Shown: one piece after another, positions 39,422-48,711 of the stretch
How the letters are laid out: each line of letters opens with the position of its first letter
Numbering within the stretch: position 1 is the first letter of the stretch
Origin: Bradyrhizobium commune
Lineage (GTDB): Bacteria; Pseudomonadota; Alphaproteobacteria; Rhizobiales; Xanthobacteraceae
Direction of reading: 5' to 3'
Assembly (NCBI RefSeq): GCF_015624505.1
Contig: NZ_CP061379.1
Location: forward strand, 4,960,001 to 5,024,000
DNA length: 64,000 nucleotides
Notes under the pieces: generated by a model
Databases searched by the model: none
Told to the model about the DNA's origin: nothing
Seen by the model: the letters and a program-made list of their open reading frames with translations, nothing else
Program-made: the position numbers and the translations under genes

Positions 39422-40702
39422 ATGGTTGCGGAGTTCATGGCGCGGCAAGCTGCCGCTCGCAACATCCACTACGGCTGGGTGATGGCGGCGCTGGGATTTC
39501 TCTACTCCCTGTTTGCAAGCTCGGCACTCGGCGTGCCCGCCGTCCTGATGCGGCAGATTGCGTCCGACGTTCACGTCAGCATGGGCGAGCTGTCGGCGTC
39601 GCAAGGACTTCGCTTCGCGCTGTTCGGGCTGGTGGCACCGTTCGCCGGTGGCCTGATGCTGCGCTACGGCCCGAGGATGATGCTGGCGGTCGCCGGCACG
39701 CTGGCGCTGGCCGGCTTGCTGCTGACGATCGTCATGACCGGCCGGTTCGAGATGTGGCTCGGCCTCGGGCTCATTCTCGGCATCGCGCCGGGGTTGACGG
39801 CGCTGCAGCTCGCAGCGGTCATTTCGGTGCGCTGGTTCACGACCCATCGCGGCTTGGTGGTCGGGCTCCTCAACGGCTCGATCGCGACCGGCACCTTGAT
39901 CTTCATGCCGCTCGGCGCATGGATCGCCGAGCATTGGGGCTGGCGCGTCGCGCTGATCCCCTCCGGCCTCGGACTTCTCCTGTCGCTCGCCCTGTTTCTG
40001 TTGTTCGGGAAGGATCGCCCGCAGGAATTGGGGCTGGCGCCGCTCGGAGAGACGGCGATGCCGCCGATCCCCGCCATGCCGACGCAGAATTTTGCGGCGA
40101 TCAGCTTCCAGGGCCTGCGCCTGGCCTCAACCCGCCTGGTGTTCTGGGTGCTGGCGCTGACCTTCCTGATCTGCGGCGTCTCCAGCTACGGGCTGACATC
40201 GACCCACTTCGTGCCGTTCTGCGGCGATCTCGGCTTGCCGGCGGTGACGTCGGCAGGCCTGCTCGCCATGATCGGTGTGTTCGACCTGATCGGCACGATC
40301 GGTTCTGGATGGCTGTCCGACCGCTACGACAACCGATGGCTGCTCGCGATCTATTACGGCTTTCGCGGGCTCGCGCTGATCTGGCTCGTCGGATCCAACG
40401 CGACGCTGGGCGCGATGAGCGCGTTTGCGATGCTCTATGGGCTCGACTTCATCGCGACCGTTCCGCCGACGGTGAGACTGACGGTCGGTGCGTTCGGGCG
40501 GGAGATGGGACCGGTGATCTTCGGCTGGATCTTCGCCGCCCATCAGCTCGGCGTCGGCCTGATGGCCTTTGCCGCGGGCGTCAGCCGGGATGCGCTCGGG
40601 ACTTACGTGCCGGCGTTCCTTCTGGCCGGAATCCTCTGCCTGCTGGCGGCCGCGGCCTTTGCCCTGGTGAGGCGACCGGCGCCGGCGGCGGTTGCTGCGT
40701 AG
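39422..40702 (+). CDS. MFS transporter (monocarboxylate/OFA-like), intact parent of two nearby remnants
   Basis: A 426-residue major facilitator with about twelve hydrophobic segments. The first half includes NIHYGWVMAALGFLYSLF and VISVRWFTTHRGLVVGLLNGS; the second has IGSGWLSDRYDNRWLLAIYYGFRG. Related proteins carry mono- and dicarboxylates. AAGGGA lies eight bases before the ATG at 39422; a TTG six bases earlier is less likely. Its 3' end (about 40441-40702) is the source of two truncated copies at 46690 and 48446 that bracket the downstream island, so this gene seems to be where the insertion or duplication took place. Confidence 0.88.
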   Translation: MVAEFMARQAAARNIHYGWVMAALGFLYSLFASSALGVPAVLMRQIASDVHVSMGELSASQGLRFALFGLVAPFAGGLMLRYGPRMMLAVAGTLALAGLLLTIVMTGRFEMWLGLGLILGIAPGLTALQLAAVISVRWFTTHRGLVVGLLNGSIATGTLIFMPLGAWIAEHWGWRVALIPSGLGLLLSLALFLLFGKDRPQELGLAPLGETAMPPIPAMPTQNFAAISFQGLRLASTRLVFWVLALTFLICGVSSYGLTSTHFVPFCGDLGLPAVTSAGLLAMIGVFDLIGTIGSGWLSDRYDNRWLLAIYYGFRGLALIWLVGSNATLGAMSAFAMLYGLDFIATVPPTVRLTVGAFGREMGPVIFGWIFAAHQLGVGLMAFAAGVSRDALGTYVPAFLLAGILCLLAAAAFALVRRPAPAAVAA

Positions 40703-41302
40703 CGGGCGCCAAACATTGCAGCACCATTAGAGCCCATTTCGATGGAACCGGAACGGGTTCCAGATATTTGACTCGTTTTCTTTACGCAACCGAACATTGA
40801 CGCAACAATGCGCGACGTCACCTTCGGGACCCATCGCGACATTTGCCGTAGTTTGCGTACGGACCGTCGGTATCGGAGCGAAGCAGACATCACCGACGAT
40901 TTATCAGTACGCGCCCCCGTACCTCTACCACCTTCCGACACTTTCAAATCTGCGTCGGATCACACTTTGTCGGACCCGATTCAAATTCTACGAGTCTGAT
41001 GTCCTGAACGCTCTGCCGGTGATAGTAGCTTGGCAACGGCAGCCCAATGGCAACACGCTAACATGCTGAGAACTAGTCGTTGCCCGCGCCCGCATCGCTC
41101 GAGGCCTCGGTTCCGCGAGCGAGTTTCTGGCGGGCACGATCCGTGCTTTGCGTCGCCAAAACGTTGCAAATTGCTAATGTCTCAACCACACTAGTGTTCA
41201 GCTGTGAGCATCGGTCAGTCTGGCATCAATGTCATCATCCAGATGACCGTTAATCTTGAGTGTATCTGTGGTTTGATCCTTTCGAAGATCGTGAGGAAAT
41301 TC
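40703..41302. other. Gene-free 600-base left margin of the island
   Basis: No convincing gene was found. Composition falls from GC-rich to mixed after about 40780. The first 100 bases (around TTTGACTCGTTTTCTTTACG) resemble common Bradyrhizobium intergenic sequence; the rest looks like decayed or unique DNA. The promoter of the hydrolase/caspase pair should lie within the last 200 bases, but no clear box was identified. Confidence 0.5.
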
Positions 41303-42145
41303 ATGGTGCGAGTGATTGGTGTGCACGGAGTCGGTCATCAATTTTCGGGTGAAAACACGATACGATCGGCTTGGCTGCCGGCGCTAAAGGACGGGTTGTG
41401 TCGCGTCGATCGATCCATGGCTTCGGATGACGACTTCGCATGCGCTTTCTATGGGGATTTGTTTCGACCACTAGGAAAGGCTACGATGGTGCCACCGCTG
41501 GATGCATCGGACATCACAGACGAGAGGGAGAAGGAGTTACTTGAGCGCTGGTGGCTAGAAGCCGCGCGGATCGATCCGATGGTCATTGGCGTCGGTGCGC
41601 AAACAAAAGTACGAACGCCGACCTCTGTTCAGCGAGCTCTCAATGCTTTGAGCCAGTCGAAATTCTTCGCCGGGATTGGCGAAAGGGCTCTAATCTTTGA
41701 TCTCAAACAAGTAAGGCGGTACTTGATCGATCAAGAAGTGCGCCGCACCGCGCAAGAGCGAATAGAGCGAAAGATAGACTCTGATACTTCGGTAATTGTC
41801 GCGCATTCTCTCGGATCAGTTGTTGCATATGAATCGCTTTGCAATCATCCCGAGTGGCCTGTGCACACCTTCGTGACAATCGGCTCCCCCCTCGGAATCA
41901 GCAACATCATCTTCGAAGAACTTCGGCCTGCCCCGCAACAGGACACTGGAATTTGGCCTCCAGGGGTGCGGCGATGGTTCAATATCGCGGACAAATATGA
42001 TGTTGTTGCCCTCGTGAAGGCGCTCTCGAGCCGCTTTGGCGACGACGTGACGGATGCGTCAATAGACAATGGCGCCAATGCGCACGACGCCACCCGCTAT
42101 CTCACGACTAAAGAGTTAGGTCATGCCGTCGCGTCAGGACTCTGA
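41303..42145 (+). CDS. Alpha/beta hydrolase partner of the caspase-STAND protein
   Basis: A 280-residue cytoplasmic alpha/beta hydrolase. The N-terminal VIGVHGVGHQFSGENT supplies the oxyanion loop. The nucleophile is S169 in IVAHSLGSVVAYESL; the acid is probably in NIADKYDVVALV and the histidine in NGANAHDATRYL. Lipase, esterase or peptidase activity is possible. The ATG at 41303 has GAGGAA six bases upstream; earlier in-frame sequence lacks such a site. Its last 23 bases overlap the next gene, so the two are translationally coupled. Base composition is well below that of the surrounding genes, pointing to transfer. A serine-hydrolase effector or regulator in a conflict system is the likely role, inferred from the partner. 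Confidence 0.85.
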   Translation: MVRVIGVHGVGHQFSGENTIRSAWLPALKDGLCRVDRSMASDDDFACAFYGDLFRPLGKATMVPPLDASDITDEREKELLERWWLEAARIDPMVIGVGAQTKVRTPTSVQRALNALSQSKFFAGIGERALIFDLKQVRRYLIDQEVRRTAQERIERKIDSDTSVIVAHSLGSVVAYESLCNHPEWPVHTFVTIGSPLGISNIIFEELRPAPQQDTGIWPPGVRRWFNIADKYDVVALVKALSSRFGDDVTDASIDNGANAHDATRYLTTKELGHAVASGL

Positions 42146-45100
42146 AACGACCCGTCGGCTCTTGATCGCCGCTGGAACGGCGCAATTCAGGGAATTGGCC
42201 GATCTCAATCTCCCGCTCGTGCCCCAAGAGCTGGATCGTATTTCGCACAGTCTGGCTTCTCTGGGGTACGATCGACAGCAAAGAGCCTCGAGTCTTGATC
42301 CCAGCAAGACTCAGATCCAGAAGGCCCTCGAAGATTTGCGAAATGACAGCCGTGCCGACGATCTTATCGTCGTCTATTATACCGGCCACGGTGTCCGCGA
42401 CAACGAGCGGTTCTATTTATTGGTGCACGATTCGATTGATTCCGACTACGACACGACCGCCCTTCCAGCCGAGGACCTTGCTCGACTCCTGACGAAAAAC
42501 TCCAAGGCGTCCCAAATTATGGTGATGCTCGACACATGCTACGCAGGTGCTGGAGCGGCAGAATTTTCGCAAATCGTCCACGATTTGGCCGGAAAGACTG
42601 GTGGAGGGCCTTCCGTTTTCGTTATGGCTGCCGCGAGACCGAAGCAGGAAGCGCAACAAGGAGCCTTCTCCGCCGCGCTCGCATTAGCATTGGCTAATCG
42701 AGACGAACAACTTGGTGGCGCGACGCAAGCTTACCTAGCTATCGACGAAGTCATGGAAGCGGTCGATGGCTATTTATCCAAACATTACCCCACGCAAATT
42801 GCTTCGTGGTCGAGCGCTAACGTTCGTGGACGCTGCAGAATTTTTCCCAACCCACACTTTAATTCACAAATACGCTCGGGTCTGGATCTGGATACACAAA
42901 GGTCCTTTTTGAATCACTGGCTTCCGAAAGCCCGTGGCGCAAGCCTTGACGTGAGTGGGTGGTATTTCACGGGCCGTCGAGTGGCTCTCCGTGACCTCGT
43001 CACTTGGTTGTCGGGAGATACCTCCTTGGGCTATCCACACGTCGTCACCGGGGGCGCAGGCAGCGGAAAATCAGCATTACTTGCCCGTCTCGTGACGCTT
43101 GCTGATCGATCCTACCGACAAGAAGTATTGGCAGCAGCAAGTCGAACGGGTCTTGACCCGAGAACCGTCCCGCCGGAAGGCATCATCGATGTCGCGGTTC
43201 ATGCTCGACACAAACTTTTGTCGGATGTGACCAAAGAAATTGCTGCTCGATTATCCCTAGATGCGGCAGACCCTTCGAGCCTGATATCTGCAATCTCTCA
43301 ATTGGGTAGGAAGGTCGTGATCGTGTTGGATGCGCTCGACGAGGCCGTTGAGCCTGACCAAATCAGTATTCAGCTGCTTCGACCTCTCGCCGAACATTGG
43401 CACGTGTTCTTGCTGATAGGTAGTCGTCCCGATTCAACCGCGGATGAAAGATTTCGAACGATTGCCAAAAGGGTTATCGAGATCGATCTTGATGACGAAA
43501 GATACATCGAACCGAACGATGTGCGACAATATGTTCTGTCTCGCCTGCTCGCCACGGAAGAGCCGGGACGTTTAACACCTTACAATAACTTGGAGGAGCG
43601 TGCGGAAGAAGTTGCTTCGGCGATTGCAGAGTGCGCAAAGAACGTTTTCCTCGTTGCACACACGGCGGTGCAAGCCTTGTTGGCTACTGAATCTGCGGTG
43701 GATACAACGGAAGTTGGTTGGATCGACAGATTACCGACTGGCGTCGATGAAGCCTTTGATCAGTTTCTTTCCGGTCTTTTTGTTCGCAGCCGAGGCAGTG
43801 TCACGTCTTCGACGGCTCGCGCCGTTCTGCTTCCGCTGGCGTTCGCGGAAGGAGAAGGTCTTCCCTGGGCGGACATCTGGTCTCCAGTTGCCACCTCGCT
43901 CTCTGGTCTAGGTATCACCGACATCGACATCTCAAACGTACGAAGATTTGTTGCCGCATTTATCGTCGAGGCGTCCGAGCACGATCGTTCAGTCTACCGA
44001 CTGTATCATGAAAGTATCGCAAAATATCTCCGCGGCAGTTTAGAGGATGATAGGGCCGCTCAGGAGCGCATTGTGGCTTGTCTTCTCGATAGGAGAGCAT
44101 CGCGTATCACTCGCGGGCGTGTATCCGATTGGTCTGACGCCCATCCGTATTTGTTGAATCACCTAGCGGCACATGCGCTCAAAGCGGGAATTCTGGCAGA
44201 GCTGGTGGCCGATATTGAGTTTCTTATATGTGCTGATGCCGAACGTCTCTATCAGGCTTTGTCAAACTCGACCGATTCTAGATCAGCTGCAGTCTACACC
44301 TGCTATTCAATCGCTTTTGAGCGGATCCGCGACCAGTTGCCAGATGTTCGGTTAGCTCGTTTGCAGATGATCGCACGGCAGCAAGGTTACGAGACTTTAG
44401 CGGATCATTGGAACGTACCTGATCGACTTCCTTGGTTCGTCCAATGGGCAAATTGGCAAGCGATATCGACTCACCGATCGTTCTCCACGATCGCGCAAGT
44501 TGAATATCTAAAAGTGGTCTTGATCGACGATCGGCCTTCGATTCTTGCCGCGCTGAACGATGAATCCATTCAAGTTTGGGATATCACCACGGGCACGATT
44601 CTCCGCGAGCTACCGTCAGCTAGGTTCGGCTTTCTAACAAATTGTAATGGTCGGCCCACCGCGATCGTTGTAGATCGAAATCGCCTGAAATTGATGGACA
44701 TCATGTTGGGAACGTATTGGGATGAGTTTCTAGCGATCGAGAACGAGCAAATCGATGAGGAAATAACCTCGATCGCGCTTGGGCAAGTTCATGACCAGCC
44801 GGTCGCGATAACAGGGTCATTCGGCGGCGGCGTTCGGATTTGGGAGGTTAAAACCGGCTGGCAACACATCGCACCGGCAACGCGCTGGAAAGAAAGAGTT
44901 ACCTCGATTGCCCTAGTGACTGACAGAGACAAGCCGATTGTGCTCATCGGGTCAGCCCGCGGAAGAGTTGATCTCCTCGAATTGGATTCTGGGGCGCACC
45001 GAACTCTAGTCGAGAGTGGCTCGGGTGTAATCTCGATAGTCGTTGGTGAAGTGGACAAGCAATCCCTTGCCGTGTCCGGAGGGCAAGACGGTGTAATTCA

Positions 45101-46316
45101 TGTTTGGAATCTTGCTGCCAGTCTAATGGACAAGCGGTTGCTACAGGGTCACGTCGGCGAGATCCGTTCTCTTCTGATAGGCGTGCTGGAAGGTTTACCA
45201 ACCATCTTCTCAGGTGGCTCGGATGGCACGATCAGGCTATGGGATCCAAATTCTGGTGTTCAACGTGGTGAACCCTTGGTCGGGCACGAGGGTGACGTTG
45301 CGGCGCTCGCGCTCTTGGAGATCAATAATCGACCAGTTCTCGTGTCGGGCGGCAGAGACCTAAAGCTTCGTGTTTGGGATTTGAATGCACGCCATCTCTC
45401 CGATCGCCAGACTACAATCGGTGTCTCGGCTCTAACCTGTGGTACTATAGATGGCAAAGACCTTGTCGTCGCAGGCTGCACCGATGGAATCATCAGATTC
45501 TTTGACTTAGCTTCGGGAAAGATGCTCGGCAGAACTCTTCAGGGGCTCTCGAGCGCCGTGACATCCGTGGTTTTAGCGAGAATCGACGATCGGGCCGTGA
45601 TCTTGTCCGCGAGCGCCGATCGAAAGATCCGTATTTGGGATTATGTGACAGGTGCTCAACACTTCGTTGGCAATCCGATTGAAGGACCAAGGAGGAGAGC
45701 TTGGTTCGCAATCGGGGCATTGACAGACAAAGCAGTTGTTATTTCACGGAGTGATGCACAGCATGTCCAAGATTGGCGCCTTGCGCTGGATGCGACGGCC
45801 CTTGTCGAGGATGATCCATTGCGTGGCTGCGTATTGGGAATAAGCCCATCTGCATTTGGAACCATAAATGATATGCCGATCGCGGTTCTGGTCGAGAATG
45901 GAACGACTAAGGCGGTGATAGTAATTTTGCTTGAGTCCGGCGCCCAGCTTAGGAGACTTTATTGCGAAGATTGGATCTCTTCAGTTGCGCTCGGTTATCT
46001 TGGTGAAAGTCTCATTTTGGTATTTGGAAGCGGTGGGAAAGTACATCTGTGGGACCTTTCTTCAGACAAGAAGTTGGTGGAGCCTCAATCCGGCTTGGGA
46101 GCGTCGTCCGTTGCGTTCGCAATATTGAATGAGCGACCGGTCGTCGTCTCCAGCGGTGGCGAGACGTTGCACATGTGGGATTTGGAGACCGGAGAAGTTC
46201 TTAGATCTGAGGTGGGGAGCACGATAACCGGAATTTCAGTTTCGAACGACGCAATTATTGTCGGGACACGCAACGGAATTCTATCGCTCCGTTGCTTGAA
46301 CACGCGAATGAACTGA
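42123..46316 (+). CDS. Caspase-like peptidase - NACHT/STAND ATPase - WD40 double-propeller protein
   Basis: A 1397-residue multidomain protein. Residues 10-240 form a caspase (peptidase C14) domain with the dyad H89 (VVYYTGHGVRD) and C139 (MLDTCYAGAG). A NACHT-type ATPase follows: Walker A at 310-317 (GGAGSGKS, K316) and Walker B at 399-408 (VIVLDALDEA). A helical region runs to about 780. The rest is about 14 WD40-like blades (IQVWDITTG, VRIWEVKTG, IHVWNL, IRLWDPNSG, LRVWDLNAR, IRIWDYVTG, LHMWDLETG), enough for two seven-bladed propellers. This is the sensor-switch-effector layout of STAND proteins acting in phage defence or cell suicide. It overlaps the hydrolase gene by 23 bases and shares its low GC. 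Confidence 0.92.
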   Translation: MPSRQDSETTRRLLIAAGTAQFRELADLNLPLVPQELDRISHSLASLGYDRQQRASSLDPSKTQIQKALEDLRNDSRADDLIVVYYTGHGVRDNERFYLLVHDSIDSDYDTTALPAEDLARLLTKNSKASQIMVMLDTCYAGAGAAEFSQIVHDLAGKTGGGPSVFVMAAARPKQEAQQGAFSAALALALANRDEQLGGATQAYLAIDEVMEAVDGYLSKHYPTQIASWSSANVRGRCRIFPNPHFNSQIRSGLDLDTQRSFLNHWLPKARGASLDVSGWYFTGRRVALRDLVTWLSGDTSLGYPHVVTGGAGSGKSALLARLVTLADRSYRQEVLAAASRTGLDPRTVPPEGIIDVAVHARHKLLSDVTKEIAARLSLDAADPSSLISAISQLGRKVVIVLDALDEAVEPDQISIQLLRPLAEHWHVFLLIGSRPDSTADERFRTIAKRVIEIDLDDERYIEPNDVRQYVLSRLLATEEPGRLTPYNNLEERAEEVASAIAECAKNVFLVAHTAVQALLATESAVDTTEVGWIDRLPTGVDEAFDQFLSGLFVRSRGSVTSSTARAVLLPLAFAEGEGLPWADIWSPVATSLSGLGITDIDISNVRRFVAAFIVEASEHDRSVYRLYHESIAKYLRGSLEDDRAAQERIVACLLDRRASRITRGRVSDWSDAHPYLLNHLAAHALKAGILAELVADIEFLICADAERLYQALSNSTDSRSAAVYTCYSIAFERIRDQLPDVRLARLQMIARQQGYETLADHWNVPDRLPWFVQWANWQAISTHRSFSTIAQVEYLKVVLIDDRPSILAALNDESIQVWDITTGTILRELPSARFGFLTNCNGRPTAIVVDRNRLKLMDIMLGTYWDEFLAIENEQIDEEITSIALGQVHDQPVAITGSFGGGVRIWEVKTGWQHIAPATRWKERVTSIALVTDRDKPIVLIGSARGRVDLLELDSGAHRTLVESGSGVISIVVGEVDKQSLAVSGGQDGVIHVWNLAASLMDKRLLQGHVGEIRSLLIGVLEGLPTIFSGGSDGTIRLWDPNSGVQRGEPLVGHEGDVAALALLEINNRPVLVSGGRDLKLRVWDLNARHLSDRQTTIGVSALTCGTIDGKDLVVAGCTDGIIRFFDLASGKMLGRTLQGLSSAVTSVVLARIDDRAVILSASADRKIRIWDYVTGAQHFVGNPIEGPRRRAWFAIGALTDKAVVISRSDAQHVQDWRLALDATALVEDDPLRGCVLGISPSAFGTINDMPIAVLVENGTTKAVIVILLESGAQLRRLYCEDWISSVALGYLGESLILVFGSGGKVHLWDLSSDKKLVEPQSGLGASSVAFAILNERPVVVSSGGETLHMWDLETGEVLRSEVGSTITGISVSNDAIIVGTRNGILSLRCLNTRMN

Positions 46317-46689
46317 ATTTGCGGTGAGATGGGTCGATCGTGCTTCTTCGGGATCAACGGCTCCTCGTTGGCAAATGCATGTCAGTTGGAAGCTCTGACG
46401 CCGTTCCCCGGGCGCAAATTGGTCACTCAGCGCCCCCAATTTCCTTCGGCAGGCGCCGCGACCATTTCTCAAGTGGATCTAAGGCGCAGATGGACGCCAT
46501 CTATAAACGTTGGCTTTGGTAAGCCTAAACGCGGGGCGGATATTTCGCCCTCTTTTGTACACGTCCAGGGAAGGAAAATGAGTTAGCCAAATGCAGCAAT
46601 TCCCTGCGCTACGATTTCGTGTTGAGGATTATTCCGAGCGGAGCGCGACTTCGATGCGCCGGAGCAATTTCTTGCACGGGCCAGGTCAG
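46317..46689. other. Gene-free stretch after the caspase gene
   Basis: About 370 bases with no supportable gene. Short reading frames here lack ribosome sites and biased codons. No T-run terminator is evident directly after the caspase stop. GC rises again toward the MFS remnant that follows. Confidence 0.5.
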
Positions 46690-46940
46690 GGGCGGCGGCA
46701 TCGCCGTTCACGCCGTCGATCCCCGCGATGCCGAAGCAGAACTTCGCGGCGACCCGCCGGCTGGATCTTTGCCGCCCATCAGCTCGGCGTCGGCCTGATG
46801 GCCTTTGCCGCGGGCGTCAGCCGGGATGCGCTCGGGACTTACGTGCCGGCGTTCCTTCTGGCCGGAATCCTCTGCCTGCTGGCGGCCGCGGCGTTTGCCT
46901 TGGTGAGGCGACCGGTGCCGGCGGCAGTGCCTGCGTGACA
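46690..46940 (+). pseudogene. MFS remnant B: internally deleted copy of the 39422 gene
   Basis: The stretch at about 46715-46750 matches the middle of the intact MFS gene (near 40065-40100: GATCCCCGC-ATGCCGA-GCAGAA). It then jumps to its 3' end, so roughly 430 bases are missing. Bases 46771-46892 are identical to 40535-40656 over 122 positions by direct reading. The remaining frame ends with a stop equivalent to that of the parent. No start codon with a ribosome site belongs to it. It is a dead duplicate or a recombination scar inside the island. Confidence 0.8.
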
Positions 46941-47210
46941 GATCAAACATCACAGGCAGATCACGCCAGGGGGCTTCAGTGCGCAAGGCCCAGAAGATGC
47001 CCATGAGGACACGACGGTCAGACTTTCCGTGTTGAGCCGATGCAACCTTGGTGTTATCTTCAACCTACATCATTCCCCCTAGGTCTGATGCACGGGCGGG
47101 TGATCAGGCTTACGGACTGCCGCCTGTATTTGAGAATGGAATACTTGAAGCCATAGGCCCCGCCTCCGGACGCATTTCAAAGCCGGCCGGGCAAAGTTCA
47201 TTGACGTTAA

Positions 47211-47252
47211 CGCCCTCCGTTCTTCCCATTGACTCGGAGGCGGGTCTTTTTT
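47211..47252 (+). terminator. Possible terminator, or 3' end of an unannotated transcript
   Basis: CCTCCG (47214-47219) pairs with CGGAGG (47235-47240), with extra CGCC/GGCG-type pairing outside, followed by GTCTTTTTT. No gene ends just upstream, so it may close a non-coding RNA from the 46941-47210 gap or be a relic. Confidence 0.35.
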
Positions 47253-47362
47253 CTGTCGAACGTTGACCAAAAAAGCGATTTCGCATGCCCATTCCGACAT
47301 GCCGAGCCGATTGCAGGGCAGGCAATGATCATTCCAGTGCAGGCCGAATTGGCCGTTACTTC

Positions 47363-48040
47363 ATGGCATCCATGCTTTGTGTGGCTTGCGGGGTTCCGTT
47401 CGCGAGCACCACGTGGGCTCAATGCGCAGCCCGGGATGTGTTGCAGAACCAGCTAAAGCTCACCATACGCTCCGCCCAAGCGCCTCAACTGCCTATAGAG
47501 TCCGCTCGCGACATTGCGACGTGGAAGACGATTGCGATCGGCACCTTTGCTGACTCGATCAGGCTGCGTAACGAGCTGGATCGGATGGGCTGCAATGTCG
47601 GAGGGCAGGCCGCGGAAATCCTTGCTCGGTCGGCATTTACCGTTGGCGCTCACAAGATAGATGTGGATCTTATCGCCGTCACACCGGCGCAGCTTGGCTT
47701 CACGTCCGATACCGTGACGTTGGCAAACGTTTACGCGCGCGCTCGACAGCTCGGCTTCGAACTTGCTGCGGCCGAGGTCGGCCCGCAATTGCGCATCCAG
47801 TATCTTGATCAGCCTATGGGTGAATTTCTCATCATTGGAATGGAGCCAATCACGACCTGGAGTGGCGAGCCAATCATCCTGAATGTTGCAAATGGCGGAG
47901 CCGGATTGATCCTCATCGGCCAAGACGGTAGAGCCACAGCGGAAATACACGTGGCATCGCGTTTTGTTTTCGCGCGTTCCCGTCAATCCGCGCCCAACCC
48001 TCAACTGGTCGTGGGAGCGGCAGGACGTCTGCCGCCGTAA
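47363..48040 (+). CDS. Secreted protein of unknown function
   Basis: A 225-residue protein with a likely signal peptide (MASMLCVACGVPFASTTWAQC). The mature part includes SARDIATWKTIAIGTFADSIRLRNELDRMGC, IDVDLIAVTPAQLGF and LRIQYLDQPMGEFLIIGMEPI. Strands and helices alternate and two or three cysteines are present. The ribosome site is weak; an in-frame ATG at 47285 would add 26 residues before the signal and is less likely. GC content is nearer to the chromosome than to the caspase gene. I do not recognise a family. It lies between the two MFS remnants, so it may have travelled with the island. Confidence 0.6.
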   Translation: MASMLCVACGVPFASTTWAQCAARDVLQNQLKLTIRSAQAPQLPIESARDIATWKTIAIGTFADSIRLRNELDRMGCNVGGQAAEILARSAFTVGAHKIDVDLIAVTPAQLGFTSDTVTLANVYARARQLGFELAAAEVGPQLRIQYLDQPMGEFLIIGMEPITTWSGEPIILNVANGGAGLILIGQDGRATAEIHVASRFVFARSRQSAPNPQLVVGAAGRLPP

Positions 48041-48193
48041 GCGTTCAGGCCTTGGGCTACCGGGTGCGGGCTTGTTCGCGACGCCAAAGGATTACCAACG
48101 AAATCTCCTTGAAACATTCGGGAAGCATAATCGTCCCATTAGCGATCAATTTTTCAAGCTCTCCGTTTTTTATCACCATCAGGGATTGTTCAA

Positions 48194-48427
48194 ATGCCCG
48201 TCACCCTTGTTGCGGTGCTCTGTTCCATTGCTTCCAGCAACTGCACCGAAGTGGTCGTGACAAACTCCAATCTGGATGCCGCAATTACTTTTCAACAATG
48301 CCTGATCGGGGCCCAAGCAGGCCTTGCTCAATGGAAGACCAATCACCCGATCTATCGGTCGGATGATTGGCGGATTGATCGCTACAAATGTGTAGCTGGA
48401 CAATACGTGGCAAAAGCGAAAATCTAA
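48194..48427 (+). CDS. Small protein of unknown function (77 residues)
   Basis: A 77-residue protein. The start MPVTLVAVLCSIASSNCTEVVV is a short hydrophobic segment, perhaps a signal or anchor. The rest reads ITFQQCLIGAQAGLAQWKTNH, then RSDDWRIDRYKCVAG, with three cysteines. AGGGA lies eight bases upstream of the ATG. From memory, similar small proteins are frequent in Bradyrhizobium, so it is probably real; the function is unknown. It lies just before MFS remnant C. Confidence 0.6.
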   Translation: MPVTLVAVLCSIASSNCTEVVVTNSNLDAAITFQQCLIGAQAGLAQWKTNHPIYRSDDWRIDRYKCVAGQYVAKAKI

Positions 48428-48445
48428 CTGCTATCGGTCATCTCG

Positions 48446-48711
48446 GCTCGACTTCATCGCGACCGTTCCGCCGACAGTCAGATTGACGGTCGGTGCGTTC
48501 GGGCGAGAAATGGGCCCGGTGATCTTCGGCTGGATCTTCGCCGCCCATCAGCTCGGCGTCGGGCTGATGGCCTTTGCCGCGGGCGTCAGCAGAGATGCGG
48601 GACTTATGTGCCGGCGTTTCTTCTGGCCGGAATCCTCTGCCTGCTGGCGGCCGCGGCCTTTGCTTTGGTGAAGCGTCCCGGCGGCGGCAGTGCCTGCATA
48701 GCGGCTGTCTC
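48446..48711 (+). pseudogene. MFS remnant C: frameshifted 3' copy of the 39422 gene
   Basis: The sequence from 48446 (GCTCGACTTCATCGCGACCG) aligns with 40441 onward of the intact MFS gene. Four bases are missing after GATGCG near 48600, which shifts the frame so that the end no longer reads as the MFS. The match continues a little past the parental stop (GCGCCAAAC). It has more point differences from the parent than remnant B. It marks the right margin of the island. Confidence 0.8.

What the first reader, a model, noticed from the sequence alone, without database searches (positions are those of the whole stretch)
41303..46316. Two-gene hydrolase / caspase-NACHT-WD40 system, candidate STAND defence or suicide module
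The large protein joins a caspase with an intact His89/Cys139 dyad, a NACHT-type ATPase with Walker A and B, and about 14 WD40 blades. This is the architecture of NLR-like STAND conflict proteins (established: bacterial Avs and related STAND ATPases act in phage defence; caspase-like proteases are known effectors). An alpha/beta hydrolase with an intact catalytic serine is translationally coupled through a 23-base overlap. This suggests a second effector or a zymogen substrate of the caspase. The pair has clearly lower GC than its surroundings and lies between copies of an MFS gene end.
Basis: partly seen in the sequence, partly recalled or inferred. Interest (0 to 1): 0.85.

Follow-up and report, generated by a model that had tools for sequence, protein, structure and literature searches.

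The report
Caspase-hydrolase pair with NLR-like sensor
Two overlapping genes in a bacterium encode an immune-receptor-like protein that carries its own caspase, and a lipase-like enzyme of a family that is nearly always encoded beside such caspases, which points to a cell-suicide switch in which the two enzymes work together.

Summary
Hydrolase (41303-42145) and caspase-NACHT-WD40 protein (42123-46316) overlap by 23 bases in a low-GC insertion between copies of an MFS gene end. Catalytic residues are intact; the big protein has a caspase fold (MALT1 and caspase-7 alike) on an Apaf-1-like chassis.

Of 80 loci collected with the hydrolase alone, 79 have a caspase gene nearby, 76 abutting. Their sensors differ: NACHT 68, VMAP 5, iSTAND 2, AAA_16-TPR 2, cut by contig end 2. 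The exception (L042) has a transposase fragment after the hydrolase and a contig end before it. Sensor type needs five changes on the hydrolase tree and five on the caspase tree, so the pair behaves as a portable cassette. Genus relatives encode hydrolase-caspase fusions; one Streptomyces caspase-NACHT gene has an LCAT-type hydrolase gene beside it instead.

Kaur et al. 2020 reported the caspase/hydrolase pairing in VMAP systems; in this sample NACHT receptors are its commonest home. Most likely: sensor oligomerises, caspase activates, lipase-like effector is licensed, cell dies. Cleavage, substrate and phage phenotype are not shown; known-defence neighbours are not clearly enriched; more distant hydrolases often lack a caspase neighbour. 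New variant of a known kind.

The parts
41303..42145 (+). alpha/beta hydrolase (280 aa), lipase-like core with helical insertion; catalytic S169/D233/H261
41293..41298 (+). GAGGAA, Shine-Dalgarno-like, before the hydrolase ATG
   Evidence: sequence, (my reading)
41807..41809 (+). codon of nucleophile S169 (AHSLGS)
   Evidence: invariant in 207 of 207 grouped rows
41465..41497 (+). hydrolase flexible loop 1, residues 55-65 (low pLDDT), candidate gate
   Evidence: gate role is inference
41573..41623 (+). hydrolase flexible loop 2, residues 91-107 (low pLDDT, highest mean entropy of the 8 segments compared), candidate gate
   Evidence: gate role is inference
42123..42145 (+). 23-base overlap of the two genes
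42123..46316 (+). caspase-NACHT-WD40 STAND protein (1397 aa)
42144..42860 (+). caspase domain, about residues 8-246 (H89, D137, C139)
42978..44042 (+). NACHT NTPase and winged-helix-like part, about residues 286-640 (Walker A K316, Walker B D403)
   Evidence: Apaf-1 1z6t_A, Foldseek E 3.5e-8; winged helix is my reading of the model's elements
44439..46313 (+). 14 WD40-like blades, about residues 773-1397, presumed sensor; least conserved part
   Evidence: many WD40 chains match; among them Apaf-1, profile positions 772-1345
46533..46551 (+). terminator-like hairpin with T-rich tail after the operon
   Evidence: 10 such sites found in the scanned stretch, 7.0 expected by chance
40440..40702 (+). 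native 3' end of the MFS gene, left border of the insertion
46758..46936 (+). duplicate of the MFS 3' end, right of the cassette
48445..48702 (+). second duplicate of the MFS 3' end

Best explanation
A two-gene, NLR-like conflict (cell-suicide) module. The C-terminal WD40 propellers sense an invader or damage cue and the NACHT NTPase oligomerises (inferred from Apaf-1/NLR likeness). Bringing the N-terminal caspase domains together activates them. The active caspase then licenses the co-translated lipase-like alpha/beta hydrolase, most likely by cutting its flexible lid loops, less likely by binding it. The hydrolase attacks membrane lipid or another acyl ester, so that the infected cell stops growing or dies. 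The hydrolase-caspase pair is a portable effector cassette that has been joined to different sensors. Shown: gene pairing, intact catalytic residues, sensor switching, fold likeness. Inferred: every biochemical step and the anti-phage role.
For: 79 of 80 loci gathered with the hydrolase alone have a caspase gene within 1.4 kb, 76 of 80 abutting or overlapping. Catalytic residues invariant in both enzymes and the NTPase in the rows compared. Sensor types: NACHT 68, VMAP 5, iSTAND 2, AAA_16-TPR 2, cut by contig end 2. Five sensor-type changes are the fewest possible on the hydrolase tree and on the caspase tree; one clade of the same 7 loci, well supported in both (SH-aLRT 98 and 100), holds all four sensor types. 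Hydrolase and caspase distances correlate (r 0.845, n 76; largest of 500 permutations 0.147). Hydrolase-caspase fusion proteins in 4 of 4 examined loci with long frames in the window's genus. LCAT-type hydrolase gene beside a Streptomyces caspase-NACHT that lacks the family hydrolase. Lipase-like fold. Caspase and Apaf-1 likeness of the partner. WD40 part about 31% identical to homologues where caspase and NACHT are about 55% (medians over 14 of the 120 listed homologues). Patchy, GC-odd, insertional. Precedent for an enzyme licensed by a fused protease: PMC12799240 (abstract and passages).
Against: No experiment. No conserved cleavage site: K102 is Leu in 39 of 68 NACHT loci, and two of three control segments hold K/R almost as often as the loops. 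Two unseeded caspase-NACHT proteins lack the family hydrolase: L170 has an LCAT-type neighbour; L171 has none in 16 kb, and 4 neighbours scanned are not hydrolases. More distant hydrolase relatives often stand alone: 8 loci (L090-L094, L133-L135) show no caspase match in the 1-1.5 kb flanks held, nor do viral loci L161 and L164-L166. Known-defence neighbours not clearly enriched. No match in 50,697 phage records. The distance correlation is also expected from mere co-inheritance.
Confidence: 0.55

Rival explanations
1. Two parallel effectors: sensor oligomers switch on both caspase and hydrolase, without the caspase processing the hydrolase; the caspase kills by cutting other proteins.
For: The hydrolase is a complete, compact enzyme (280 aa, pLDDT 92) with no obvious removable pro-domain; the candidate cut loop is not conserved in residue; one caspase-NACHT (L171) has no family hydrolase in the 16 kb held.
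Against: The pairing follows the caspase and not the sensor: the same hydrolase family goes with caspase-VMAP, caspase-iSTAND and caspase-TPR, and 3 NACHT-WD relatives without a caspase match have no family hydrolase in the 12-17 kb held.
Confidence: 0.22
2. The hydrolase is a regulator (guard, inhibitor or maturation factor, antitoxin-like) of the caspase, not an effector.
For: It is the first gene in 61 of 79 paired loci, and in 49 of these 61 the longest-frame reading overlaps the caspase gene, as an antitoxin might; the high conservation of the hydrolase (55-72% among 38 rows) would fit a structural partner.
Against: Ser/Asp/His triad invariant in 207 of 207 grouped rows, which pure binding would not need; gene order is reversed in 17 of 80 loci; an LCAT-type enzyme stands in its place at one locus.
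Confidence: 0.13
3. Not phage defence: a developmental or stress-triggered death or lysis programme (as LypABC controls gene-transfer-agent release, PMC13236601, passages), or a housekeeping function.
For: PADLOC neighbours not clearly enriched; many carriers are actinobacteria and cyanobacteria, where death can be developmental (recalled).
Against: Accessory distribution (1 of 398 genomes of the phylum), odd GC, insertion at a variable site; a housekeeping role is unlikely.
Confidence: 0.1

Closest known systems
VMAP / iSTAND MoxR-vWA ternary conflict systems with caspase plus alpha/beta hydrolase (Kaur et al. 2020, PMC7159879; passages read)
   Same: Same pairing: the paper says that a caspase on VMAP is always accompanied by a neighbouring alpha/beta-hydrolase gene. 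Loci L010, L016, L018, L067, L076 (VMAP) and L028, L033 (iSTAND) carry the hydrolase family of the window.
   Different: The window shows no MoxR, vWA or VMAP match in the proteins scanned; the caspase is fused to a NACHT with intact Walker motifs and to WD40 propellers.
Metacaspase-NACHT-WD40 proteins (Asplund-Samuelsson et al. 2012, PMC3501461; passages read)
   Same: Same architecture, described there as widely distributed; hydrolases are named there among the commonest enzymes in metacaspase operons.
   Different: No specific hydrolase partner or mechanism for this architecture is given in the passages that I read.
Nuclease-protease pairs of Hachiman/AVAST and Canu caspase-nuclease (Tuck et al. 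2025, PMC12799240; abstract and passages read)
   Same: Separate enzyme gene beside a protease that is part of the defence protein; the pair moves among unrelated systems; the protease licenses the enzyme.
   Different: Partner is an alpha/beta hydrolase and not an MBL-fold nuclease; no site-specific cleavage known here.
Apaf-1 and caspases (PDB 1z6t, 3sfz, 3uo8, 4hq0)
   Different: The caspase is covalently part of the receptor instead of being recruited through a CARD (CARD recruitment is recalled).
Avs and bNACHT anti-phage STAND proteins (recalled; Kibby et al. 2023 not held)
   Same: N-terminal effector, central STAND NTPase, C-terminal repeats.
   Different: No PADLOC Avs model matches at E up to 0.1; the effector is a caspase with a separate hydrolase.

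Membership tests
STAND / NLR-like NTPase (works like) | NACHT/NB-ARC NTPase with Walker A and B | tested here: met
   Pfam NACHT above cut-off; K316 185/185, D403 189/189; Apaf-1 hit
STAND / NLR-like NTPase (works like) | C-terminal superstructure-forming repeats | tested here: met
   14 WD-like motifs; WD40 chains incl. Apaf-1 matched
STAND / NLR-like NTPase (works like) | Ligand-triggered oligomerisation | not testable with these tools
   needs biochemistry
Avs (AVAST) systems | Sequence match to an Avs family model | tested here: not met
   PADLOC-DB returned a generic caspase model (E 9.2e-6) and two weak others (E 0.056, 0.074)
VMAP / iSTAND MoxR-vWA ternary system | MoxR AAA+ and vWA genes beside the caspase protein | tested here: not met
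   Neighbours are frc, MFS and LysR; no VMAP, iSTAND, MoxR or vWA family among those listed for 7 window proteins (best 25 of 45 shown for the big protein)
VMAP-type caspase/alpha-beta-hydrolase pairing | Caspase domain with a neighbouring alpha/beta-hydrolase gene of the same family | tested here: met
   79 of 80 loci, including VMAP and iSTAND loci with homologous hydrolases
EACC1 two-gene system | 5' gene encodes EACC1 (single TM helix) | tested here: not met
   5' gene is an alpha/beta hydrolase; NCBIfam caspase_w_EACC1 80.2 bits against cut-off 140
Canu / nuclease-protease pair | MBL-fold nuclease partner | tested here: not met
   Partner is an alpha/beta hydrolase
Caspase-family protease | His/Cys dyad in caspase fold | tested here: met
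Caspase-family protease | Basic P1 preference as in metacaspases and paracaspases | not testable with these tools
   D137 of the D-x-C motif is invariant (195/195); that such an Asp lines an acidic S1 pocket is recalled
Lipase-type alpha/beta hydrolase | Ser-Asp-His triad in alpha/beta-hydrolase fold | tested here: met
Lipase-type alpha/beta hydrolase | Activity on lipid esters | not testable with these tools
   needs enzyme assay
Anti-phage defence system | Enrichment beside known defence genes | tested here: inconclusive
   9 family matches, one member each, among 102 neighbours of 18 loci; 89 control proteins gave 46 family matches, of which the 25 shown have one member each and are mostly PD-T4-6 models
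Anti-phage defence system | Protection from phage | not testable with these tools
   needs plating assays

The most novel reading that the evidence does not exclude
A portable bacterial caspase-activated lipase cassette: an Apaf-1-like receptor with a built-in caspase cuts a gated pro-lipase, so that the cell destroys its own membrane lipids. It would be a lipid-hydrolysing counterpart of the caspase-gasdermin route, shared by at least four sensor types, reduced to a single fused polypeptide in relatives of the window's genus, and perhaps countered by a large phage that carries a lone hydrolase homologue (one contig, L161) as a decoy.
Probability: 0.25. Interest if true: 0.87.

Novelty: new variant of a known kind. 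Interest (0 to 1): 0.66.

Why it matters
If true, it adds a second class of proteolytically licensed enzyme (lipase-like, after nucleases) to bacterial NLR-like immunity; Tuck et al. 2025 (PMC12799240, passages) raised other such enzyme classes as a possibility. It also gives a minimal two-gene system, plus natural fusion proteins, in which caspase-to-lipase signalling can be tested directly.

Tried and rejected
Gate-site test: a conserved caspase cleavage residue in the hydrolase loops. K102 looked promising in the close group (117 of 120) but is Leu in 39 of 68 NACHT loci; K/R occurs in the two loops in 200 and 198 of 200 rows, in three control segments in 41, 188 and 193 of 200. Not established.

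Defence-island test: 102 neighbours of 18 loci against 89 proteins from 18 stretches of 16 of the same 17 genomes, at places that I chose, not drawn at random; genes were called by my own codon-composition rule, so wrong frames may be among them. No clear enrichment.

Prophage origin: no match in the phage collection. IMG/VR gave 6 relatives: 2 (L162, L163) carry the pair, 1 (L161) a lone full-length hydrolase, 3 are weak (31-49 bits) without a caspase match. Whether L162 and L163 are truly viral was not checked.

Distant relatives, told against the reading: plasmid hydrolases of 26-42% identity (8 fetched of 50 records): caspase annotated next door in 2 of 8 and confirmed by Pfam in 1; VMAP in 1; WD40 or ATPase proteins adjacent in 3; a hypothetical protein without a Pfam match in 1; 1 record region without annotation, not examined. 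So the pairing is solid for the family of the window (43-54% identity in the 80 loci), and only partial beyond it.

Avs, EACC1, VMAP-ternary and Canu membership: not met. Sequence search of the hydrolase against the PDB gave nothing below E 0.045.

Prior-art searches that did not show the NACHT-WD40/hydrolase pair described: (open-access library only; of most papers only the listing was seen).

Name of the organism: no call names the host. I suspect Bradyrhizobium from size and gene content; this is recall, not a result.
Full report
What is there. The window is bases 4960001-5024000 of a single-contig 7.62-Mb genome that no call names. Formyl-CoA transferase, an MFS transporter and a LysR regulator surround the finding. 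Gene 1 (41303-42145) encodes 280 aa with an HG-x-G start, an AHSLGS nucleophile elbow and a conserved Ser/Asp/His set. Gene 2 (42123-46316) encodes 1397 aa. They overlap by 23 bases.

The pair is real and caspase-centred. Scripts then looked for caspase genes with a profile from the big-protein homologues. 79 of 80 have one: 61 downstream (50 with NACHT, 11 without), 17 upstream on the same strand with NACHT, 1 on the other strand. 76 of 80 abut or overlap; L019, L026 and L078 lie 588-1342 bases off. In L026 another hydrolase precedes the caspase directly. In L078 a 529-aa frame lies between. In L019 a 317-aa frame on the other strand lies between. The one miss, L042, has a Mutator-family transposase fragment 111 bases after the hydrolase, and the contig ends about 100 bases before it, so an upstream partner could not be seen. 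Of the 11 partners without NACHT, 5 are VMAP, 2 iSTAND, 2 AAA_16-TPR (in L075 the AAA_16 match is below its cut-off) and 2 are cut by contig ends. The L028 iSTAND locus shows AAA, CoxE-type vWA and FGE-sulfatase genes in a row.

Reverse direction. In the 19 genomes that hold 20 chosen loci, a Streptomyces caspase-NACHT query gave 24 matches in 17 genomes. 18 are loci already chosen through the hydrolase. Of the 6 others, 3 have a caspase domain: one has the hydrolase abutting (L167); one has none of the family but a divergently transcribed LCAT-type hydrolase about 100 bases away (L170; LCAT E 3.6e-11); one has no family hydrolase in 16 kb, and its four scanned neighbours are APH, acyl-CoA dehydrogenase, TetR and short-chain dehydrogenase (L171). 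The 3 NACHT relatives without a caspase match have no family hydrolase in the 12-17 kb fetched. In the plasmid collection, 3 of 3 hits of that query lie beside a hydrolase hit; two of them cover the caspase part, the third only the NTPase part.

Portable cassette. On a hydrolase tree (93 rows) the sensor type needs 5 changes, and on a caspase tree (79 rows) also 5; VMAP alone needs 3, of which well-supported branches force 2, on both. On the hydrolase tree one of these changes comes from a distant plasmid row (L132), and two plasmid rows (L125, L128) were labelled NACHT from WD40/ATPase annotation only. The clearest case is a clade of 7 loci that is the same in both trees (SH-aLRT 98 for hydrolase, 100 for caspase): it holds NACHT (L060), VMAP (L067, L076), iSTAND (L028, L033) and AAA-TPR (L044, L075). 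The other VMAP loci L010/L016/L018 have L061, L009 and the window's group as nearest kin in the caspase tree, and the window's group in the hydrolase tree. So hydrolase and caspase moved together between sensors. Their distances correlate (r 0.845, 76 rows), which common inheritance would also give. Both trees are quick ones with modest support; L012, L015, L026, L042 and L078 were left out of the caspase tree.

Fusion evidence. In the genus of the window, 12 of 146 genomes have a match to the hydrolase profile at E up to 1e-3. Four of these loci (L095-L098), all that I examined with frames over 500 aa, turned out to be single 534-669-aa proteins with a Peptidase_C14 domain (E 5e-27 to 3e-28). 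In three, the hydrolase motifs (HGVGH, AHSLGS) precede it; in L096 the frame read starts within the hydrolase part. The hydrolase match is weak (30-37 bits). Five others (L090-L094) are hydrolases without a caspase match in the flanks held. The fusions support joint function independently of NACHT and WD40.

Origin of the locus. The cassette lies in a 52-58% GC stretch (41-49 kb) within 60-68% surroundings. Copies of the MFS 3' end flank it. In relative G009 a partial MFS gene is followed by 1.9 kb of other sequence and then by the 48.1-kb and 50.4-kb regions, without the cassette. In G002 the same neighbourhood holds other genes, one of them an IS110-family transposase. The close hydrolase occurs in 1 of 146 genus genomes, with the next best match at 74 bits, and in 1 of 398 phylum genomes above 76 bits; the caspase-NACHT part likewise in 1 of 398.

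Mechanism. WD40 identity to 14 of the 120 listed homologues is about 31%, against about 55% for caspase and NACHT and 55-72% among 38 aligned hydrolases, as expected if the propellers are the sensor. Most likely the sensor oligomerises, the caspase is activated, and the hydrolase is licensed. Tuck et al. 2025 (PMC12799240; abstract and passages) showed that in Hachiman and AVAST, and in the caspase system Canu, a protease switches on a nuclease encoded beside it, and raised other enzyme classes as a possibility. I looked for the corresponding gate signature. The two flexible loops lie in the inserted part and are the most variable of the 8 segments compared, but no universal cut residue exists. 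Cleavage therefore stays a hypothesis. Lipid as substrate rests on fold likeness, the LCAT replacement, and the lipid role predicted for alpha/beta hydrolases in PMC8195603 (passages).

Against the reading. No phenotype; neighbours not clearly rich in known defence genes; a caspase-NACHT without a hydrolase neighbour exists (L171); beyond the family of the window the pairing is only partial.

What is known. Kaur et al. 2020 (PMC7159879, passages) state that a caspase on VMAP is always accompanied by an alpha/beta-hydrolase gene. Asplund-Samuelsson et al. 2012 (PMC3501461, passages) list metacaspase-NACHT-WD40 as widely distributed. What I add is that NACHT receptors are the commonest home of that pair in this sample, that the hydrolases are one family across sensors, that the pair switches sensors as a unit, and that fused and lipase-replaced forms exist. 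Eight searches of an open-access library did not show this described; subscription papers were not seen.

Noticed in passing
L161:8001-8852 (IMG/VR 226-kb contig): A full-length hydrolase homologue (46% identity) without any caspase match in the 16.8 kb held, beside helicase and RNA-polymerase-like phage genes: possible decoy or captured effector.
   Followed up: partly
   Followed up: partly
L170:9312-10724: LCAT-type hydrolase gene divergent from a caspase-NACHT-WD40 gene that lacks the family hydrolase.
   Followed up: partly
window 40440-48702: Three copies of the 3' end of the MFS gene, as if the site had taken up DNA at least twice; relatives G002 and G009 differ at the same place, G002 with an IS110-family transposase.
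   Followed up: partly
window 47285-48040: 251-aa ORF with no Pfam match at intermediate GC between the two MFS-end copies.
   Followed up: no
window 48077-48450: Stretch 90% identical in relative G009, between the cassette and the second MFS-end copy.
   Followed up: no
L026:4357-10858: Amycolatopsis locus with two hydrolase genes around one caspase-NACHT gene.
   Followed up: no
G000:C1:6057686-6059572: Another locus in the window's own genome with weak matches to the caspase and WD40 parts.
   Followed up: no
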